Assembly: GCF_004005855.1 (NCBI RefSeq)
Contig: NZ_SACL01000001.1
Location: 1,116,001 to 1,180,000 of the forward strand
Source: Rhodovarius crocodyli
GTDB lineage: Bacteria > Pseudomonadota > Alphaproteobacteria > Acetobacterales > Acetobacteraceae
Direction: 5' to 3'
DNA length: 64,000 nt
In this document: positions 35,788-41,761 of the stretch, in pieces
Layout: each line of letters opens with the position of its first letter
Numbering within the stretch: position 1 is the first letter of the stretch
The notes under the pieces: generated by a model
The model's database searches: none
What the model saw: only the letters and a program-made list of their open reading frames with translations
Told to the model about the DNA's origin: nothing
Position numbers and translations under genes: made by a program

Positions 35788-36662
35788 TCCGTGACTTCGA
35801 GGGCTATGGCCGCAACCCGCCCGACGCCCGCTGGCCCGGCGGCGCGCGGCTGGCGCTGAACTTCGTCATCAACCACGAGGAAGGCGGCGAGCGCAGCGTG
35901 CCCGACGGCGACCCCGTCTCGGAAACCGCGCTGACCGAGGGCAGCACCATCCCGCCCCAGGGCCGGGATTTGGGCGCGGAATCCATGTTCCAATACGGCA
36001 GCCGCGTGGGCTTCTGGCGGTTGTGGCGGCTGTTCCAGGAAGCCGGGCTGCCCTGCACCGTGTTTGCCGTGGCGCAATGCCTGCAACGCACCCCCCAGGC
36101 GGCCGCCGCCATCCGCGAGGCCGGCTGGGACGTCGCGGGCCACGGCCTGCGCTGGGAAAGCCACGCCGACATGGACGAGGCGACCGAGCGCCATAACCTG
36201 ACCGAAGCCACACGCATCATCGAGGAAACCACCGGCCAGCGCCCGCTCGGCTGGTACTGCCGCTATGCGCCCAGCCTGAACACGCGGCGCATCCTGGATG
36301 AGCTGGGCTACCTGTACGACAGCGACGCCTATGACGATGAGCTGCCCTATTGGGACCATCAGATCGGCAAGCCGCGCCTGGTGGTGCCCTATACGCTGGT
36401 GAACAACGACGTGCGCTTCCAGCGCGCTGCCCTGACGACCGGCGAGGAGTTCGAGCGCTACATCATGGGTGCCATCGAAATGGCGCTGCATGAGCCGGGG
36501 AGCCGCATGCTCTCGGTCGGGCTGCACAACCGCATCATCGGGCACCCGGCGCGCGCGATCGGGCTGAAGCGCATCCTGGCGCGGGTGCGCGCGATGCCTG
36601 ATATCTGGGTCTGCCGGCGCGTGGATATCGCGCGGCATTGGGAAAAGGAACATCCGCCGTGA
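35784..36662 (+). CDS. Polysaccharide deacetylase-family protein, PuuE-type allantoinase-like
   Basis: This 292-residue protein is closer to PuuE-type sequences: GYGRNPPDARWPGGARLALNFVINHEEGGERSVPDGD at the N terminus, FQYGSRVGFWRLWRLF, AGWDVAGHGLRWESHADM (metal-site His) and VGLHNRIIGHPARAIGLKRIL. PuuE hydrolyses allantoin to allantoate without the classical binuclear metal site. Whether that is the substrate here is not certain, because the downstream gene encodes a CitE-type lyase rather than allantoate enzymes. Overlaps of four bases link it to both neighbours. Confidence 0.87.
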   Translation: MIRDFEGYGRNPPDARWPGGARLALNFVINHEEGGERSVPDGDPVSETALTEGSTIPPQGRDLGAESMFQYGSRVGFWRLWRLFQEAGLPCTVFAVAQCLQRTPQAAAAIREAGWDVAGHGLRWESHADMDEATERHNLTEATRIIEETTGQRPLGWYCRYAPSLNTRRILDELGYLYDSDAYDDELPYWDHQIGKPRLVVPYTLVNNDVRFQRAALTTGEEFERYIMGAIEMALHEPGSRMLSVGLHNRIIGHPARAIGLKRILARVRAMPDIWVCRRVDIARHWEKEHPP

Positions 36663-37522
36663 AGAAGCTGCCCCATTGGCGTTCCCTGATGTACGTGCCG
36701 GCCGCGCGGGAGAAATTCATCGCCAAGGCGCATGAGCGCGGCGCGGATGCCATCATCCTGGACCTGGAGGACAGCATCGCGCCGGCGGAAAAGCCCGCGG
36801 CGCGCGCGGCGCTGGCCGGCGCGGTGCCGCGGGTTTCGGCCAACGGCGCGGATGTGGTGGTGCGCATCAACCGCCCGCTGGAGATGACCGTGCAGGATAT
36901 CGAGGCCGCGGTGATGCCCGGTGTGCGGGCGCTGGTCTGCACCAAGATCATGGGCTCGGACCACGTAAAACTGCTGGCTGAGCTGATCGAGGAGGCCGAG
37001 GCACGGCAGCGCATGGAGATCGGGCACACCGGCATGGTGGTGCTGGCAGAGGATGCGGCCGGCGTGCTGCGCGCGGAGGAGATTGCGCGCGCACACCCGC
37101 GCATCGTGGCGCTGGGGATCGGCGGGGAGGATCTGGCGACCGATCTGGGCGCCGAGGCGACGCCGGATGCGCTGGAACTGCCGAAGCGGCTGGGGGTGCT
37201 GGCGGCGCGCTCGGCCGGGGTGCTGCCGCTGGGCTTCATCGGGACGGTGGCGGGGCTGAGCGACCTGGAGGGGTACCGGGCGATGCTGCGGCGGTCTCGG
37301 GCGATCGGGTTTGCCTGCGCGAGCTGCGTGCACCCGTCTCAGGTGGCGATCATCAATGAGGAGTATGGGGCGAGCGAAGAAGAACTGGCCCGGGCGAAAA
37401 GGATGATCGCGGCGTTTGAGGTGGCGTTGGGGCAGGGGCTGGGGGCGGTGAGTTTTGAGGGGCAGATGATTGATTTGCCGGTGGTGGAGAGGGCGAGGAG
37501 GTTGGTGGAAAGGCAGAGGTAG
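36659..37522 (+). CDS. HpcH/HpaI aldolase/citrate lyase (CitE-type) family protein
   Basis: The 287-residue TIM-barrel protein has the CitE-family marks: RSLMYVPAAREKFIAKAHERGADAIILDLEDSIAPAEK at the N terminus, VVRINRP, TKIMGSDHVKLLAEL and FACASCVHPSQVAIINEEY. Members cleave or form C-C bonds in acyl-CoA substrates such as malyl-CoA or beta-methylmalyl-CoA. Its GTG overlaps the upstream deacetylase-type gene by four bases. The 3' end shows gradually falling GC content, and the AT-rich ATPase gene starts 34 bases later. Confidence 0.9.
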   Translation: MKKLPHWRSLMYVPAAREKFIAKAHERGADAIILDLEDSIAPAEKPAARAALAGAVPRVSANGADVVVRINRPLEMTVQDIEAAVMPGVRALVCTKIMGSDHVKLLAELIEEAEARQRMEIGHTGMVVLAEDAAGVLRAEEIARAHPRIVALGIGGEDLATDLGAEATPDALELPKRLGVLAARSAGVLPLGFIGTVAGLSDLEGYRAMLRRSRAIGFACASCVHPSQVAIINEEYGASEEELARAKRMIAAFEVALGQGLGAVSFEGQMIDLPVVERARRLVERQR

Positions 37523-37556
37523 AAACAATAATAATATTTTGAAAAAAAGGATTAAC

Positions 37557-39314
37557 ATGATACATACAGTTCATTTAAAGAATTTTAAAAAGTTTTCTGA
37601 TAGTGTCATAAAATTACATCCAAATAATATAACTTTTGCTGCCGGCGCTAATAATTCTGGAAAATCAACTTTACTCCAAGCGCTGGCTGTGTGGGAATTT
37701 TGCAAAATCGTCCTACAAAATGAAAAAGGAATAGAAAGTCTACTATCGGGATATTCCGGGCAGGGACTAGGAATATCTGATGATGAATTTTCTCCTATTT
37801 CCATTGCAACGCTAAAGCATTTGTGGACGAACCTAAAAAGCCAGCTACCGGGAAAAGATGGGTATTCATTATCCATTCAATGTGATTGGAGTGATGCATC
37901 CGGAAAACTAAAGCATCTGAAAATATCTCTTGCCTTAACTAATGATCGGCTTTTTATTAAATCAGAGAATTCAAATTTATCGAGAGAAGATCAAATTCCT
38001 ACCATTGCTTACCTGCCGACCTTTGCTGGGATAGCATCGCGCGAAAATAAGATGTCAGTTGCAGAGAGGCGCGGCATGATTGGTCGCGGTCTTGCTGGAG
38101 GAATTATCCGAAATCTGCTTTTAGATATGCACAATGATAATATTAATACGAGGAGTATGAAACGAGGCGAGAGATCAAAAATAAAAAGCTCAGACTTAAA
38201 AATAATTAGAAATTCAGATCCATGGGAAATACTACAAGTTACTCTGGGAAATTTATTCTCTATGAATTTAATAGTGGATCATTTTAACGATTTATTTCAT
38301 ACTTATATAAAAATATATAGTGTCAAGGGAAAGCAAGAAGGTTATAGTTTTAAAAAATACTCAGGCTATACACCGCGCGATCTAATGGCAGAAGGTAGTG
38401 GTTTCCTACAGTGGCTTAGCGTTTATGTTCTTGCATTAAGCCAATCAAATAATATCCTCTTGCTCGATGAGCCAGATGCTCATCTACACCCGCTTTTGCA
38501 AGATCAACTTATAAATGCACTCGCTGAAATTGGATCTAAGTCTGAAAAACAAATAATAATGGCAACCCATAGTACAGAAATTCTCAGGTGGGCCGAAAGT
38601 ACGAAAGTCCTTTCTTTTTCAAATAAAACTCCGAAATATTTAGTTGATGATAATGGAAAATTGAGTTTATTTATAGGTCTTGGAAGTGAGTATTCGCCAA
38701 AAATTGATCCATTAAAAAAGAACAAAAGGATGCTAATTGTCGAAAATAACAGCGATTTTAGAATATTGAAAATATTTTCCGAAATACTAGAAGTAAAATG
38801 GCCATCAAATTTGGTCGTTTGGCCGTGGAATGGTGGAAATAAGGAAAGAAAGCAACTATTTATTCAATTAAAAAAAGAAATACCTGATCTAAAGGCGATT
38901 GGAATTAGGGATCGCGATGATCTTGAATTAGCACAGGTTGACCCAATAAGCCTCGAGGATGGTTCATTTTCGGGAAAAGAACCTGATATGTCACTAAAAA
39001 CATGGCGACGTAGGCAAATCGAAGGTTATATTATTTATCCACCGGCTATAGCTAGAGCTGGAGGCTGTGATGAAAGTGAAATAATTAGTGCAATGGCAGC
39101 GCAAGCTCTTGTTATACCTGACGACTTTAAGTCCCGTGACGTCGCTTCAGCCATACTGGACGCGCGAGCAAAAGAAATAATGGAAGAGGTAGACAATAAT
39201 ATAAATAAATTATTTAAGGTAGACAAATTTAAAGTTGTTTCAAATTTTAAAAAAGACGAAGTGCCGGAAGATGTGTCGTATTTGATCAACGAAATTGTGA
39301 ATATGTGCAATTGA
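37557..39314 (+). CDS. OLD-like AAA ATPase with C-terminal TOPRIM-like domain (defence candidate)
   Basis: The 585-residue protein begins with an ABC/SMC-type ATPase: Walker A GANNSGKST (residues 30-38) and Walker B ILLLDEPDAHLHP with Asp304-Glu305. A C-terminal part carries TOPRIM-like acidic marks: Glu396 in LIVENNSD, Asp452-Arg-Asp454 in GIRDRDDLE, and RRRQIEGYII with Glu489, resembling OLD-family nucleases. Base composition and codons (AAA, AAT, ATA, AGA) are far more AT-rich than both flanks, a sign of recent transfer. It has AAGGA before the ATG. OLD-type proteins act in phage defence, alone or with partners; no GajB-like helicase or other partner adjoins it. Confidence 0.8.
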   Translation: MIHTVHLKNFKKFSDSVIKLHPNNITFAAGANNSGKSTLLQALAVWEFCKIVLQNEKGIESLLSGYSGQGLGISDDEFSPISIATLKHLWTNLKSQLPGKDGYSLSIQCDWSDASGKLKHLKISLALTNDRLFIKSENSNLSREDQIPTIAYLPTFAGIASRENKMSVAERRGMIGRGLAGGIIRNLLLDMHNDNINTRSMKRGERSKIKSSDLKIIRNSDPWEILQVTLGNLFSMNLIVDHFNDLFHTYIKIYSVKGKQEGYSFKKYSGYTPRDLMAEGSGFLQWLSVYVLALSQSNNILLLDEPDAHLHPLLQDQLINALAEIGSKSEKQIIMATHSTEILRWAESTKVLSFSNKTPKYLVDDNGKLSLFIGLGSEYSPKIDPLKKNKRMLIVENNSDFRILKIFSEILEVKWPSNLVVWPWNGGNKERKQLFIQLKKEIPDLKAIGIRDRDDLELAQVDPISLEDGSFSGKEPDMSLKTWRRRQIEGYIIYPPAIARAGGCDESEIISAMAAQALVIPDDFKSRDVASAILDARAKEIMEEVDNNINKLFKVDKFKVVSNFKKDEVPEDVSYLINEIVNMCN

Positions 39315-39320
39315 AAGCGT

Positions 39321-39341
39321 GGGCGGGTTGTAAACCCGCCC
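39321..39341 (+). terminator. Hairpin after the OLD-like gene
   Basis: A 9-bp stem with a three-base loop pairs GGGCGGGTT (39321-39329) with AACCCGCCC (39333-39341), seven bases past the stop. There is no strong T-run after it, so it may be a weak or Rho-aided end. It also sits at the point where base composition returns to high GC, so it may mark the boundary of the inserted segment. Confidence 0.55.
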
Positions 39342-39361
39342 GTTCCCAACGTTTGCGGGCC

Positions 39362-40702
39362 TCACCCCTCCATATCCACATCCCTAGTCTCAGGCCCTAA
39401 CACCAACGCCACCAGCGTCAGCACCGCCATCGCGCTCAAATAAACCCCCACCCAGAACGGGCTCCCGCCCCCGGCGCTCCACAGCGCCACCGCCACGAAC
39501 GGCGCCAGCGCGGCCCCCAGGATGGAGGACAGGTTGTAGCTGATCCCCGACCCCGTATACCGCACGCTCGCCGGGAACAGTTCCGGCAGCAGCGCGCCCA
39601 TGGGCCCGAAGGTCAGCCCCATCAGCGAAAAGCCCAGCACCAGCCACGCCATCACGCCCACGAAGCCCCCGGCCAGCATCGGCACCCACAGCAGCCCGAA
39701 CACCGCGATGCCCAGCGTGATGCCGATCATCGTCTTCCGCCGCCCCCACTTCTCCGCCCAGGGGCCAGAGACCAGCGTGAACACGCCAAAAAACACCACG
39801 CCCAAAATCATCATCAGCACGAAGCTGCGATAGTCATACCCCAGCCCCGGCAGCGCCGCGTTCACCGCCGCCCGCCCATAGCTCAGCGAAAACGTGGTCA
39901 TCAGATAGAACAGCACATAGGTCGCCAGCATGTAGAAGGTGCCCAGCACCAGCTGCCGCCCATGGTTCTGGAACACGGCGGCCAGCGGCACCTTGTGCAC
40001 CTGGCCCTGGTCCACGGTCTTCTTGAAGGCCGCGCTCTCCACCAGGTTCAGCCGCACCCACATCCCCACCACGACCATCACGATCGAGAACAGGAACGGC
40101 ACCCGCCACCCCCAGCTCAGAAAGGCCTCCGACGGCCGGGACGGATCGCTGGACGGCAGCACCGCCGCGATGATCAGGAACAGTCCGTTGGCGATGATGA
40201 AGCCCAGCGGCGCGCCCAGCTGCGGAAAGGTGCCATAGATGGCGCGCTTGCCCTTCGGCGCGTTCTCGGTGGCCACCAGCGCCGCACCGGACCACTCGCC
40301 GCCCAGCGCAAAACCCTGCGCCAGCCGCATCACCGTCAGCAGCGCCGGCGCCAGCCACCCAACCATCTCATAGGTCGGCAGCGCGCCGATCAGGAAGGTC
40401 GCGATGCCCATGGTCAGCAGCGACCCCACCAGCGTCACCTTGCGGCCCTTCTTGTCGCCCATATGCCCGAAGGCGATCGCCCCCAGCGGCCGGGCCACCA
40501 TCGCCGCGCCGAACACGCCGAAGCTCGCGAGCAGCGCCACCGTGTCATTGCCCGCCGGGAAGAACAGGTGCGGAAACACCAGCACCGCCGCCGTGGCGTA
40601 GATATAGAAGTCATAGAACTCGATGGTGGTGCCGATCAGGCTGGCCATGATCACGCGGGATCGCGGATTGGCGGGAACGGCCTCGGCAGTGGTGGCGGAC
40701 AT
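39362..40702 (-). CDS. MFS transporter, metabolite:H+ symporter (MHS) family
   Basis: The 446-residue protein has twelve predicted membrane spans. It carries MHS hallmarks: LIGTTIEFYDFYIYATAAVLVFP at the N terminus, RPLGAIAFGHMGDKKGRK (the conserved loop 2-3 motif), MRLAQGFALGGEWSGAALVATENAPKGKRA, and FPASVRYTGSGISYNLSSILGAALAPF. The family takes up organic acids and osmolytes such as alpha-ketoglutarate, citrate, proline or shikimate with protons. It is convergent with the ATPase gene, so it is not part of the deacetylase operon. Substrate unknown. Confidence 0.92.
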   Translation of the reverse strand: MSATTAEAVPANPRSRVIMASLIGTTIEFYDFYIYATAAVLVFPHLFFPAGNDTVALLASFGVFGAAMVARPLGAIAFGHMGDKKGRKVTLVGSLLTMGIATFLIGALPTYEMVGWLAPALLTVMRLAQGFALGGEWSGAALVATENAPKGKRAIYGTFPQLGAPLGFIIANGLFLIIAAVLPSSDPSRPSEAFLSWGWRVPFLFSIVMVVVGMWVRLNLVESAAFKKTVDQGQVHKVPLAAVFQNHGRQLVLGTFYMLATYVLFYLMTTFSLSYGRAAVNAALPGLGYDYRSFVLMMILGVVFFGVFTLVSGPWAEKWGRRKTMIGITLGIAVFGLLWVPMLAGGFVGVMAWLVLGFSLMGLTFGPMGALLPELFPASVRYTGSGISYNLSSILGAALAPFVAVALWSAGGGSPFWVGVYLSAMAVLTLVALVLGPETRDVDMEG

Positions 40703-40978
40703 GGTGGCTCTTTCAGTGCGGGGCGTGCCCTCGCTGGCCTGTCTCGTCGCGTCCTCGTTGCAATGCTGCGGCCGGGCAGGGCCCGCCGACATTTCCGGTC
40801 GCGCCGATGCGCCCCGCAGCAATGTTCCGCCGAGGCTAGTCGCTGAAATGTCATGCGGCCAGCGCGGGGCGCGCTGGGCAGCCCCGCCCCAGGCGCAGGC
40901 CCGAAAATAACTGAATCACGCCTTGTTTCCGCCTTCGATCACTGAAACGTTACCAGTATCCCGAGGTTGGAGAGCCCC

Positions 40979-41761
40979 ATGCGTCTTGCCGTTGCTTTGC
41001 TCGCTGCGGTTGTGTGTCTTGCCGTGCAAAGTCGCACCGCCGGGGCCGCCCCCCGCCCCGCCGATTGCGAGCTGACGGTGAACGGCCGCAGCTACATCCG
41101 CGGCCAGTGCCAGTTCGATGCCGATGCGGATGGCAGCTTCCGCATCAACGGCACGGACTACTTCGCCTATGTGAACGTCACCGCCCCCGGCGTGGCCGAG
41201 GCCAGCTGGAACGCGGACCCCGCCTCCACCCACGCCCACAACCCGCTGGGTGAGCTGCGCCGCCAGGGTGCCTGCTGGGTCGGCGCCAATGTCCGCATCT
41301 GCGCCCGCGCCCTGTCGCCGGAGGCCCTGCGCACCGCCCAGGCCGCCCAGCCCAACGGCTTCGCGCTGTGGCCCATCACCCCGGGCCTGACGGCCTGCAT
41401 CGGCCCCCAGGGGGCGCTCGCCGCCGGCACCCGGATGGTGCTGCGCAACTGCCGCGTTCCGGCGGATCTGCTCGTCCAGCGCGCCCCGGACGGCGCGCTC
41501 ACCCTCTCGGGCAACCTCTGCCTCGGCGTCGAGGCCCCCGGTATGGGCCGCCCGGCAGAGCTGATCGCGGAGCCCTGCGCCCCCAGCTCCCCCCGCTGGA
41601 CCACTCAGGCCACCGCCACCGAGGAAGCGATCGTGCGCTCGTCAGCGGGCATGTGCCTGACCATCCCGGCCATGGCCCGCCCCGAGACGCCCTTCCCGTA
41701 CACGGTCAACGTCGCCCCCTGCGCCGCCACCGCCACCAAGTTCATCCTGTCCCGAGGCTGA
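40979..41761 (+). CDS. Secreted Cys-containing protein of unknown function
   Basis: The 260-residue protein has a signal peptide (MRLAVALLAAVVCLAVQSRTAGAA). The mature part contains about ten cysteines. Its second half (AGTRMVLRNCRVPADLLVQRAPDGALTLSGNLCLGVE, then SSAGMCLTIPAM) resembles ricin-type beta-trefoil repeats (Q-x-W-like LCL pattern), though QxW motifs are incomplete. The first half (ADCELTVNGRSYIRGQCQFDADADGSFRING) is typical of small exported bacterial proteins. The next secreted protein gene follows after five bases. Carbohydrate binding is only a guess. Confidence 0.6.
   Translation: MRLAVALLAAVVCLAVQSRTAGAAPRPADCELTVNGRSYIRGQCQFDADADGSFRINGTDYFAYVNVTAPGVAEASWNADPASTHAHNPLGELRRQGACWVGANVRICARALSPEALRTAQAAQPNGFALWPITPGLTACIGPQGALAAGTRMVLRNCRVPADLLVQRAPDGALTLSGNLCLGVEAPGMGRPAELIAEPCAPSSPRWTTQATATEEAIVRSSAGMCLTIPAMARPETPFPYTVNVAPCAATATKFILSRG

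What the first reader, a model, noticed from the sequence alone, without database searches (positions are those of the whole stretch)
37523..39341. AT-rich single-gene insert encoding an OLD-like ATPase with TOPRIM-like tail
Base composition changes abruptly: flanks are about 70% GC by eye, this gene is AT-rich with AGA, ATA and AAA codons. It encodes Walker A and B motifs plus C-terminal acidic residues (Glu396, Asp452, Asp454, Glu489) resembling OLD-family nucleases. It sits alone after a catabolic operon and ends at a GC hairpin. I know OLD-like proteins from P2 Old and Gabija GajA, but no GajB helicase is adjacent, so this may be a stand-alone or divergent defence protein.
Basis: partly seen in the sequence, partly recalled or inferred. 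Interest (0 to 1): 0.72.

Follow-up and report, generated by a model that had tools for sequence, protein, structure and literature searches.

The report
Solitary horizontally acquired ATPase-TOPRIM defence gene
A foreign, AT-rich gene dropped between two ordinary metabolic genes encodes a one-piece sensor-plus-nuclease protein of the kind bacteria use against viruses; a sister species has a different anti-virus system in the same spot, and close relatives sit in prophages and inside restriction operons.

Summary
Gene 37557-39314 (585 aa) has 36% GC and GC3 0.29, against 66-75% GC and GC3 0.86-0.94 in ten neighbouring genes. It stands alone between a CitE-like lyase gene and a convergent MFS gene. 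The N-terminal half is an SMC/Rad50-type ABC ATPase. The C-terminal half is modelled as a TOPRIM domain of AriB/OLD type and keeps the two-metal residues (E396, D400, D452, D454, E489, K539). Three findings point to defence. (1) The closest congener has a BglII-type restriction-modification cassette at exactly this site. (2) Relatives (37-59% identity) in four phyla include three inside type I RM operons, others beside SIR2 or GmrSD genes or alone at housekeeping sites. (3) Others are accessory genes in viral contigs and at one junction of P2-like prophages in 5 of 5,426 E. coli genomes. Best explanation: a single-chain, PARIS-like sensor-nuclease acting by abortive infection; trigger and substrate unknown. 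It fails the published DUF4435 criterion for PARIS. New variant of a known kind.

The parts
37508..39361 (.). Inserted stretch: from the last codons of the CitE-like gene to the stop codon of the MFS gene; replaced by an unrelated insert in the closest congener
   Evidence: Nucleotide match to congener G005 stops at query base 870 (37507) and resumes at 2725 (39362); alignment of both borders
37557..39314 (+). Single-chain ATPase-TOPRIM protein, 585 aa (P0001)
   Evidence: Open frame with ATG; Pfam AAA_15 6.5e-22 and AAA_21 1.7e-19; model pLDDT 88.3, pTM 0.77
37644..37667 (+). Walker A motif GANNSGKS, residues 30-37
   Evidence: G30, G35, K36 in all 25 rows of 26 that cover the position
38454..38477 (+). 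Walker B ILLLDEPD, residues 300-307
   Evidence: D304, E305 invariant in 26 of 26 and 88 of 88
38568..38570 (+). Switch histidine H338
   Evidence: Invariant in 26 of 26 and 88 of 88
38724..39191 (+). TOPRIM core and helical part, residues 390-545
   Evidence: Isolated model pLDDT 91.4; best matches AriB Z 10.3, OLD C-terminal region Z 9.1
38742..38756 (+). E396-x3-D400, first TOPRIM acidic motif
   Evidence: Each invariant in 26 of 26; each kept in 87 of 88 wider-family members; matched by order and spacing to E400/E404 of Bp OLD (PMC6755086, passages)
38910..38918 (+). D452-x-D454, TOPRIM DxD
   Evidence: 26 of 26; D452 88 of 88 and D454 81 of 88
39015..39029 (+). Q-I-E489-G-Y (family consensus xIENY), helix acid
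   Evidence: E489: 25 E + 1 D of 26, 83 E + 5 D of 88; matched by order to E508 of Bp OLD
39171..39173 (+). K539, matched by order to catalytic K562 of Bp OLD
   Evidence: 26 of 26; 67 of 88 in the wider family
39321..39341 (+). Perfect 9-bp hairpin between the convergent genes, part of the insert
   Evidence: One place in the genome; not in the congener's border; no T run
36638..37522 (+). Left flank: HpcH/HpaI (CitE-like) lyase
   Evidence: Pfam PF03328 2.3e-33
39362..40822 (-). Right flank: MFS transporter
   Evidence: Pfam MFS_1 9.8e-29

Best explanation
It is a horizontally acquired, one-gene anti-phage system. [quoted passage not shown] the site is exchangeable (a restriction-modification cassette in the sister genome); relatives lie in prophages and in restriction operons. 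Inferred: the ATPase half assembles into a sensor that holds the nuclease silent; a phage product (most likely one that blocks the host's first-line restriction or repair, as in PARIS, P2 Old and Gabija) triggers it; the activated TOPRIM half cuts nucleic acid by two-metal catalysis and stops growth of the infected cell. By kinship of the TOPRIM half with AriB, the substrate is guessed to be tRNA rather than phage DNA; that last step is the least certain. This is a statement of function; the first two rivals are about family membership and overlap with it.
For: ATPase: Pfam AAA_15/AAA_21; full model over residues 1-378 matches PtuA (best Z 21.7), SMC heads (18.8), AriA (18.5) and Rad50 (17.7); TsOLD is in the Foldseek list at E 2.2e-11. 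TOPRIM: isolated-domain model, AriB Z 10.3 (171 residues, 3.8 A), OLD C-terminal regions 8.4-9.1, PH0156 9.0, TsOLD 7.8, GajA 6.8-7.7, Eco8 6.1, Eco2 6.0, next row 4.6. Two-metal residue set conserved (compared with Bp OLD). Profile of the wider family's C-terminal half against a PARIS-type TOPRIM set: 97.5%, E 7e-12. Exchange: closest congener (flanks 88-91% identical) has MT-A70 methylase and BglII-family endonuclease at the same site. Context of relatives: inside type I RM operons in Novosphingobium, an uncultured Bacteroidia and a Lachnospiraceae bacterium, beside SIR2 in Paenibacillus, near GmrSD in Pseudomonas. Prophages: close relatives in 9 viral contigs, one of them (L128) with a broken frame; at one junction of P2-like prophages in E. 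coli. Gene GC below flank GC in 27 of 28 close loci, equal in one.
Against: I found no phage assay for any member. The tool warns that a best Z of 7-8 is typical of models without clear relatives; AriB's 10.3 is only modestly above, and AriB and OLD differ by about 1, a tie. Foldseek alone gave no C-terminal match at E<=0.001; the PDB profile search gave none of AriB or OLD. A profile of the 26 close members alone gave only 13.6% against one AriAB fusion. No member scanned matches Pfam DUF4435. No relative of the window protein or of the E. coli prophage protein was found in the collection of phage records. Not every relative is next to defence genes: L040 is beside gatB, L041 lies between nusG and the ribosomal protein L1 gene, the one L049 neighbour scanned had no Pfam hit. 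An E. coli class 1 OLD (YbjD) kept its phenotype without its TOPRIM domain (PMC13261556, part 1 of 2 read), and an archaeal OLD protein works in the cell cycle (PMC12796447, start of abstract in a listing), so architecture alone does not prove this mechanism.
Confidence: 0.66

Rival explanations
1. A class 1 OLD nuclease in the strict sense (P2 Old, TsOLD): single gene, acting on DNA and linked to RecBCD. (Membership claim; overlaps with the functional explanation.)
For: Solitary gene, ATPase plus TOPRIM, about the same length, prophage accessory position; TsOLD Z 7.8 and OLD C-terminal regions up to Z 9.1; the ATPase half matches OLD-type and AriA/AriAB proteins alike (96.9-97.4% against 97.4-98.3%); PADLOC's Old model matches 18 of 19 members of a wider set; Pfam OLD-like_TOPRIM weakly in 6 of 26 members, best 0.018.
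Against: The family's C-terminal profile gives 3.8% and 2.0% against two OLD-type proteins but 89-95% against four of nine AriAB/AriB/DUF4435-type proteins; the Old model is not among the best 25 of 153 for this protein. The OLD side had only two sequences, so the test is uneven.
Confidence: 0.2
2. A true member of PARIS in its fused AriAB form, triggered by DNA-mimic anti-restriction proteins such as Ocr. (Membership claim; overlaps with the functional explanation.)
For: PADLOC AriAB model 1.7e-19, 68 bits, best stretch residues 295-521; AriB is the top structural match; relatives sit inside type I RM operons, and an ATPase-DUF4435 pair sits inside a BREX locus.
Against: A fusion found with that model scores 364 bits against 68 here; the published rule uses DUF4435 at 27 bits, or fusion models at 80 or 20 bits (PMC9122126, passage), and DUF4435 is not matched at all. 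Which fusion threshold belongs to the PADLOC model is not known to me.
Confidence: 0.3
3. A housekeeping or DNA-repair ATPase that merely has unusual composition.
For: ABC ATPase half resembles Rad50/SMC; an archaeal OLD protein has a cell-cycle role (listing).
Against: No full-length copy found in the 8 congeners searched, drafts of 69-98% completeness; exchanged for a restriction system in the nearest one; scattered across phyla and in viral contigs; foreign composition.
Confidence: 0.04
4. A decaying foreign gene with no present function.
For: Codon use has not adapted to the host.
Against: Full-length open frame and every catalytic residue kept.
Confidence: 0.06

Closest known systems
PARIS, fused AriAB form (and AriA + AriB)
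   Same: ABC ATPase plus TOPRIM; VE..D, DxD, ENYL and GK motifs in the nuclease (sequences printed); one ATPase-DUF4435 pair seen inside a BREX locus
   Different: Shorter (585 vs 692 aa for L198), 68 vs 364 bits with the AriAB model, no DUF4435 match, trigger unknown
Class 1 OLD nucleases (P2 Old, TsOLD, E. coli YbjD)
   Same: One solitary gene, N-terminal ABC ATPase and C-terminal TOPRIM with E, E/D, DxD, E and K residues; P2 Old is also a prophage accessory gene
   Different: TOPRIM sequence profile does not match the two OLD-type proteins tested (2-4%)
Gabija GajA
   Same: ATPase-TOPRIM chain; TOPRIM fold match Z up to 7.7
   Different: No GajB helicase beside it; the GajA models among the best 25 have their best stretch on the ATPase
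Retron Eco8 / type I-B effector
   Same: ATPase-TOPRIM effector; TOPRIM Z 6.1
   Different: No reverse transcriptase in the insert, which holds this one gene

Membership tests
OLD superfamily (ABC ATPase + TOPRIM) | N-terminal ABC ATPase with Walker A, Walker B, switch His | tested here: met
   Pfam AAA_15 6.5e-22; invariant residues; best Z 17.7-21.7 to PtuA, SMC, AriA, Rad50
OLD superfamily (ABC ATPase + TOPRIM) | C-terminal TOPRIM fold with E-x3-E/D, DxD, distal E and K | tested here: met
   Fold match (not by Foldseek alone); residues in 26 of 26 (E489: 25 E, 1 D), compared with Bp OLD; no counterpart of its T506
Class 1 OLD | Single gene without GajB, RT or other partner | tested here: met
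   Neighbours are CitE-like and MFS; insert holds this gene only
Class 1 OLD | TOPRIM sequence kinship to P2 Old type | tested here: inconclusive
   3.8% and 2.0% profile probability against two sequences only
PARIS | DUF4435 (PF14491) at or above 27 bits beside or fused to AAA_15/AAA_21 | tested here: not met
   No DUF4435 hit for the protein, 0 of 19 and 0 of 26 members
PARIS | Published fusion models (80 or 20 bits) | tested here: inconclusive
   68 bits with PADLOC's AriAB model; which threshold applies is unknown
PARIS | AriB-type TOPRIM by profile comparison | tested here: met
   97.5% for the 88-member profile against a six-sequence set; singly, 4 of 9 above 88%, 1 at 49%, 4 below 10%; the 26-member profile alone only 13.6% against one fusion
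PARIS | Toxicity triggered by anti-restriction protein (Ocr) | not testable with these tools
   Needs an experiment
Gabija | GajB UvrD-like helicase immediately downstream | tested here: not met
   Downstream gene is an MFS transporter on the other strand
Retron type I-B | Reverse transcriptase and ncRNA adjacent | tested here: not met
   Insert 37508-39361 contains only this gene; adjacent genes are CitE-like and MFS. The ncRNA itself was not searched for in the window
Horizontally mobile defence gene | Site occupied by a different defence system in a sister genome | tested here: met
   MT-A70 methylase 2.1e-30 and BglII endonuclease 6.3e-42 in G005; only G005 of 8 congeners has the same two flanks adjacent

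The most novel reading that the evidence does not exclude
A distinct, widely transferred clade of one-chain ATPase-TOPRIM proteins, missed by present PARIS (DUF4435) detection, that serves as a portable second line behind restriction: it sits inside type I RM operons, swaps places with type II RM cassettes and rides P2-like and Mu-like prophages, killing the cell by cutting tRNA when a phage disables restriction.
Probability: 0.25. Interest if true: 0.72.

Novelty: new variant of a known kind. Interest (0 to 1): 0.52.

Why it matters
Whether a lone OLD-like protein can give broad phage defence is named as an open question in a 2023 review (PMC10568477, sections 4 and 7 read). This family offers ready test material: the same kind of single gene occurs in P2-like prophages of E. 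coli (5 of 5,426 complete genomes, two of the five bearing one strain name), where phage panels and knock-outs exist, and inside type I RM operons, which makes the 'second line behind restriction' idea directly testable. It also suggests that PARIS counts based on DUF4435 leave out AriB-like fusions.

Tried and rejected
P0001 alone found no relative in viral contigs and none in the phage records; its C-terminal 225 aa found nothing in plasmids even at E 10. The alignment query then found 60 viral loci, so the first result reflects low sensitivity; the phage-record search with the E. coli prophage protein, however, was also empty. The full-length label 'AriA' (best PADLOC hit) was set aside: those two models have almost exactly the lengths of Pfam AAA_15 and AAA_21, which the PARIS paper used as AriA detectors, so I take them as not specific. 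The PDB profile search with the C-terminal alignment gave only chance-like hits, and the search of viral structures gave loose matches to ATPases and endonucleases, best TM-scores about 0.3 by query length. Rfam found nothing in the congener's locus. Foldseek with the C-terminal model gave nothing at E<=0.001; the TOPRIM call rests on the second aligner, the residue set and the profile comparison. In the 7 other congeners the region downstream of the CitE-like gene showed no AT-rich stretch in what was held (736 to 3,530 bases, 250-base bins 0.57 or higher); in none is the MFS gene adjacent, so they cannot serve as empty sites. No terminal direct repeat convincing as a target duplication was seen, so the mode of insertion is unknown. 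Plasmid relatives were 22-34% identical with less than 80% cover and were not followed.

Dropped rows: L128 (frame split in two) and L050, L055 were left out of the 26-row alignment A3, which is the query plus 25 of 28 close loci; L043 lacks its N-terminus there because of start choice. The wider family count of 88 is the query plus 87 of the 89 loci L040-L128 that gave an ORF of at least 430 aa matching the A3 profile. Only two OLD-type and nine AriB/DUF4435-type comparison sequences were available. Selected neighbours were Pfam-scanned for 9 of 19 close genome loci, a choice made after reading ORF starts, so the share with defence neighbours is not an unbiased estimate.
Full report
WHAT IS THERE. 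The window lies in a 5.27-Mb genome (48 contigs) on contig 11. Between 37.5 and 39.35 kb the GC content falls from about 0.70 to 0.35. The stretch holds one gene, 37557-39314 on the plus strand, 585 aa. Its GC is 0.363 and its GC3 0.285; ten neighbouring genes have GC 0.66-0.75 and GC3 0.86-0.94, and its codon index against those neighbours is 0.126, theirs (against themselves) 0.64-0.85. It starts 34 bases after the stop of an HpcH/HpaI (CitE-like) lyase gene, same strand, and faces an MFS gene on the other strand. Between the two lies a perfect 9-bp hairpin, found once in the genome, without a T run and not unusually stable as a 60-nt region.

PROTEIN, FIRST HALF. Pfam AAA_15 (6.5e-22) and AAA_21 (1.7e-19) match. 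The AlphaFold2 model made from 26 rows has pLDDT 88 and pTM 0.77. Over residues 1-378 it matches PtuA (best Z 21.7), SMC heads (18.8), AriA (18.5) and Rad50 (17.7). Walker A, DE(PD) and the switch histidine are invariant in the rows that cover them.

PROTEIN, SECOND HALF. Alone it hits no Pfam or PADLOC model with confidence. Modelled alone (pLDDT 91) it aligns best to AriB of PARIS (8ux9_A, Z 10.3, 171 residues, 3.8 A; 8v46_D, 9.6), then OLD C-terminal regions (6nk8 9.1, 6njv 8.8), PH0156 (9.0), TsOLD 7.8, GajA 7.7, retron Eco8 6.1 and Eco2 6.0; the next row is 4.6. The tool's own note says best Z of 7-8 is common for models without clear relatives, so the weight lies in the agreement of 13 rows, not in one Z. 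Foldseek by itself gave no match at E<=0.001. Pfam DUF3226 matches 11 of 26 relatives (best 6.4e-6) and OLD-like_TOPRIM 6 of 26 (best 0.018), at E<=1; DUF4435 matches none. That PH0156 is TOPRIM-like and belongs to DUF3226 is recalled. In Bp OLD the active site uses E400, E404, D455, D457, T506, E508 and K562 (PMC6755086, passages read). The counterparts here, matched by me by order and spacing, are E396, D400, D452, D454, E489 and K539: invariant in 26 of 26 close rows except E489 (25 E, 1 D), and kept in 87, 87, 88, 81, 83 (+5 D) and 67 of 88 wider-family members. I have no counterpart of T506.

WHICH KIND OF TOPRIM. A profile of the wider family's C-terminal half (88 members) scored 97.5% (E 7e-12) against six AriAB/AriB/DUF4435-type sequences and 9.3% against two OLD-type ones. 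Singly: AriAB fusions 91 and 95%, an AriB-like protein inside a BREX locus (L210) 94%, one DUF4435 protein 89%, an ATPase-DUF4435 fusion 49%, four others under 10%, OLD-type 3.8 and 2.0%; reversed controls at most 6.7%. The profile of the 26 close members alone gave much less: 13.6% against one AriAB fusion, 3.1% against the OLD-type one. The ATPase half does not discriminate (96.9-98.3% to the OLD-type, AriAB and AriA proteins tested). The sets are unequal, and by structure AriB and OLD are tied, so 'AriB-like' is probable, not settled. The PADLOC AriAB model gives this protein 68 bits and a fusion from another genome 364 bits. The published PARIS rule needs DUF4435 at 27 bits or fusion models at 80 or 20 bits (PMC9122126, passages). 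The protein fails the first; I do not know which fusion threshold applies to the PADLOC model. The two PADLOC 'AriA' models that score best here are not specific: their lengths (373, 304) are practically those of Pfam AAA_15 and AAA_21.

THE SITE. Of 9 genomes in the genus (own included), only the closest congener, G005, also has the CitE-like and MFS genes adjacent; flanks are 91% and 88% identical. Between them, from the last codons of the lyase gene to the MFS stop codon, it has a different insert: an RHH-like small protein (weak, 0.0015, under Pfam's cut-off), an MT-A70 methyltransferase (2.1e-30) and a BglII-family restriction endonuclease (6.3e-42). The two sites lie inside contigs of 1.24 Mb and 61 kb. 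No convincing repeats mark the ends. No full-length homologue was found at E<=0.001 in the 8 congeners, which are drafts of 69-98% completeness; one (G003) has a weak 66-residue ATPase match.

RELATIVES. The 19 include Asticcacaulis, Sphingomonas, Novosphingobium, Rhodobacteraceae, Streptomyces, Microbacteriaceae, Paenibacillus, Lachnospiraceae, Bacteroidia and Pseudomonas. The viral scan gave 60 loci, 9 of them close (36-47%). In a tree of 26 close rows and 4 distant ones, drawn with a midpoint root, the window protein falls with three alphaproteobacterial proteins (100/98); seven of the eight viral rows form one clade, L126 does not. The gene is poorer in GC than its flanks in 27 of 28 close loci and equal in one.

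NEIGHBOURS. Selected neighbours (20 proteins) of 9 of the 19 close genome loci were Pfam-scanned. Three loci lie inside type I restriction-modification operons: hsdR-hsdM-hsdS-gene in Novosphingobium L042, hsdM ... hsdS-gene ... hsdR in Bacteroidia L053, hsdM-hsdS-gene-hsdR in Lachnospiraceae L054. L047 follows a SIR2-domain gene, L058 has GmrSD about 1 kb downstream and an integrase upstream, L051 a TrwC relaxase upstream. L040 stands beside gatB and L041 between nusG and the ribosomal protein L1 gene; the one L049 neighbour scanned had no hit.

PROPHAGES. In viral contigs L121-L123 the gene sits, on the opposite strand, in what reads as a P2-like late operon. A DNA search with the L122 gene found it in 5 of 5,426 E. 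coli genomes at 99.5-99.9% identity, two of them under one strain name; in the 3 regions opened it lies between 'phage baseplate assembly protein V' and a 'phage virion morphogenesis protein' (P2 gene S, a name I recall) and is annotated only 'AAA family ATPase'. A query spanning this junction hit 1,033 records, 5 of them over at least 80% of the query; 60 spread rows were listed, 53 of which reach both flanks: 26 have no insert (span 1,092-1,094 bases), 1 has this gene, and 26 have other inserts by their labels: 12 'hypothetical', 1 hypothetical plus IS1, 5 DUF6216, 2 AIPR, 2 SIR2, 2 FRG-domain, 1 PcfJ-domain, 1 Sll1717-type ATPase (counted by reading rows). P2-like prophages are known to carry defence hotspots (PMC9122126 and PMC9519451, passages); whether this junction is already described I did not establish (one search was seen as a listing only). 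That it is where P2 carries orf30 is recalled. L124 and L126 look Mu-like and L127 P2-like from ORF starts read by eye, not tested.

MECHANISM. Shown: architecture, active-site residues, foreign composition, exchange with a restriction system, company of restriction systems and prophages. Inferred: sensing by the ATPase, activation of the nuclease, growth arrest. AriB cuts tRNA and is described as a two-metal nuclease (PMC12409363, passages); P2 Old is stated to cut a host tRNA (PMC13261556, part 1 of 2 read, citing another work); PARIS responds to an anti-restriction protein (PMC9122126, passages). Placement inside RM operons and in the place of an RM cassette fits a second line behind restriction, but the same work says PARIS does not need an RM system present and rules out that it guards EcoKI, so this is only one possibility.

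NOVELTY. The literature searches listed no paper that I recognised as describing this clade; only open-licence PMC papers are held and most were seen as listings. I rate it a new variant of a known kind (ATPase-TOPRIM defence proteins).

Noticed in passing
L190 4825-6440 (genome G005): A compact BglII-type restriction-modification cassette (RHH-like, MT-A70 methylase, BglII-family endonuclease) replaces the window's gene at the same site, as if the site were a small exchange place for defence cassettes.
   Followed up: yes
L212 5266-8247 and rows: The junction between V and the virion morphogenesis gene of P2-like prophages in E. coli is variable: of 53 listed two-flank rows 26 are empty, 1 has this gene, 26 have other inserts (AIPR, SIR2, FRG, DUF6216, PcfJ, hypothetical and others). 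May be a further P2 defence hotspot.
   Followed up: partly
L123 1-11758: A viral contig carries two copies of the gene (one cut by the locus end) and of the V-W-J-I-like genes in inverted orientation around the tail-fibre region; either an inverted duplication or an assembly effect.
   Followed up: no
L042, L053, L054: The ATPase-TOPRIM gene sits inside type I RM operons of three distant bacteria, a possible restriction-linked habit.
   Followed up: partly
PADLOC models PDLC02979, PDLC02980: Models named AriA have practically the lengths of Pfam AAA_15 and AAA_21 and hit all 19 ATPase-TOPRIM-type rows scanned; a bare 'AriA' label from them is not specific.
   Followed up: partly
window 40967-41761: Protein beyond the MFS gene whose sequence, by eye, suggests lectin-like (beta-trefoil-like) repeats; not tested.
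   Followed up: no
L211 26603-27754: The same E. coli P2-like prophage also carries a TIGR02391 family gene between portal and replication genes, the published P2 hotspot, so one prophage holds accessory genes at two places.
   Followed up: no
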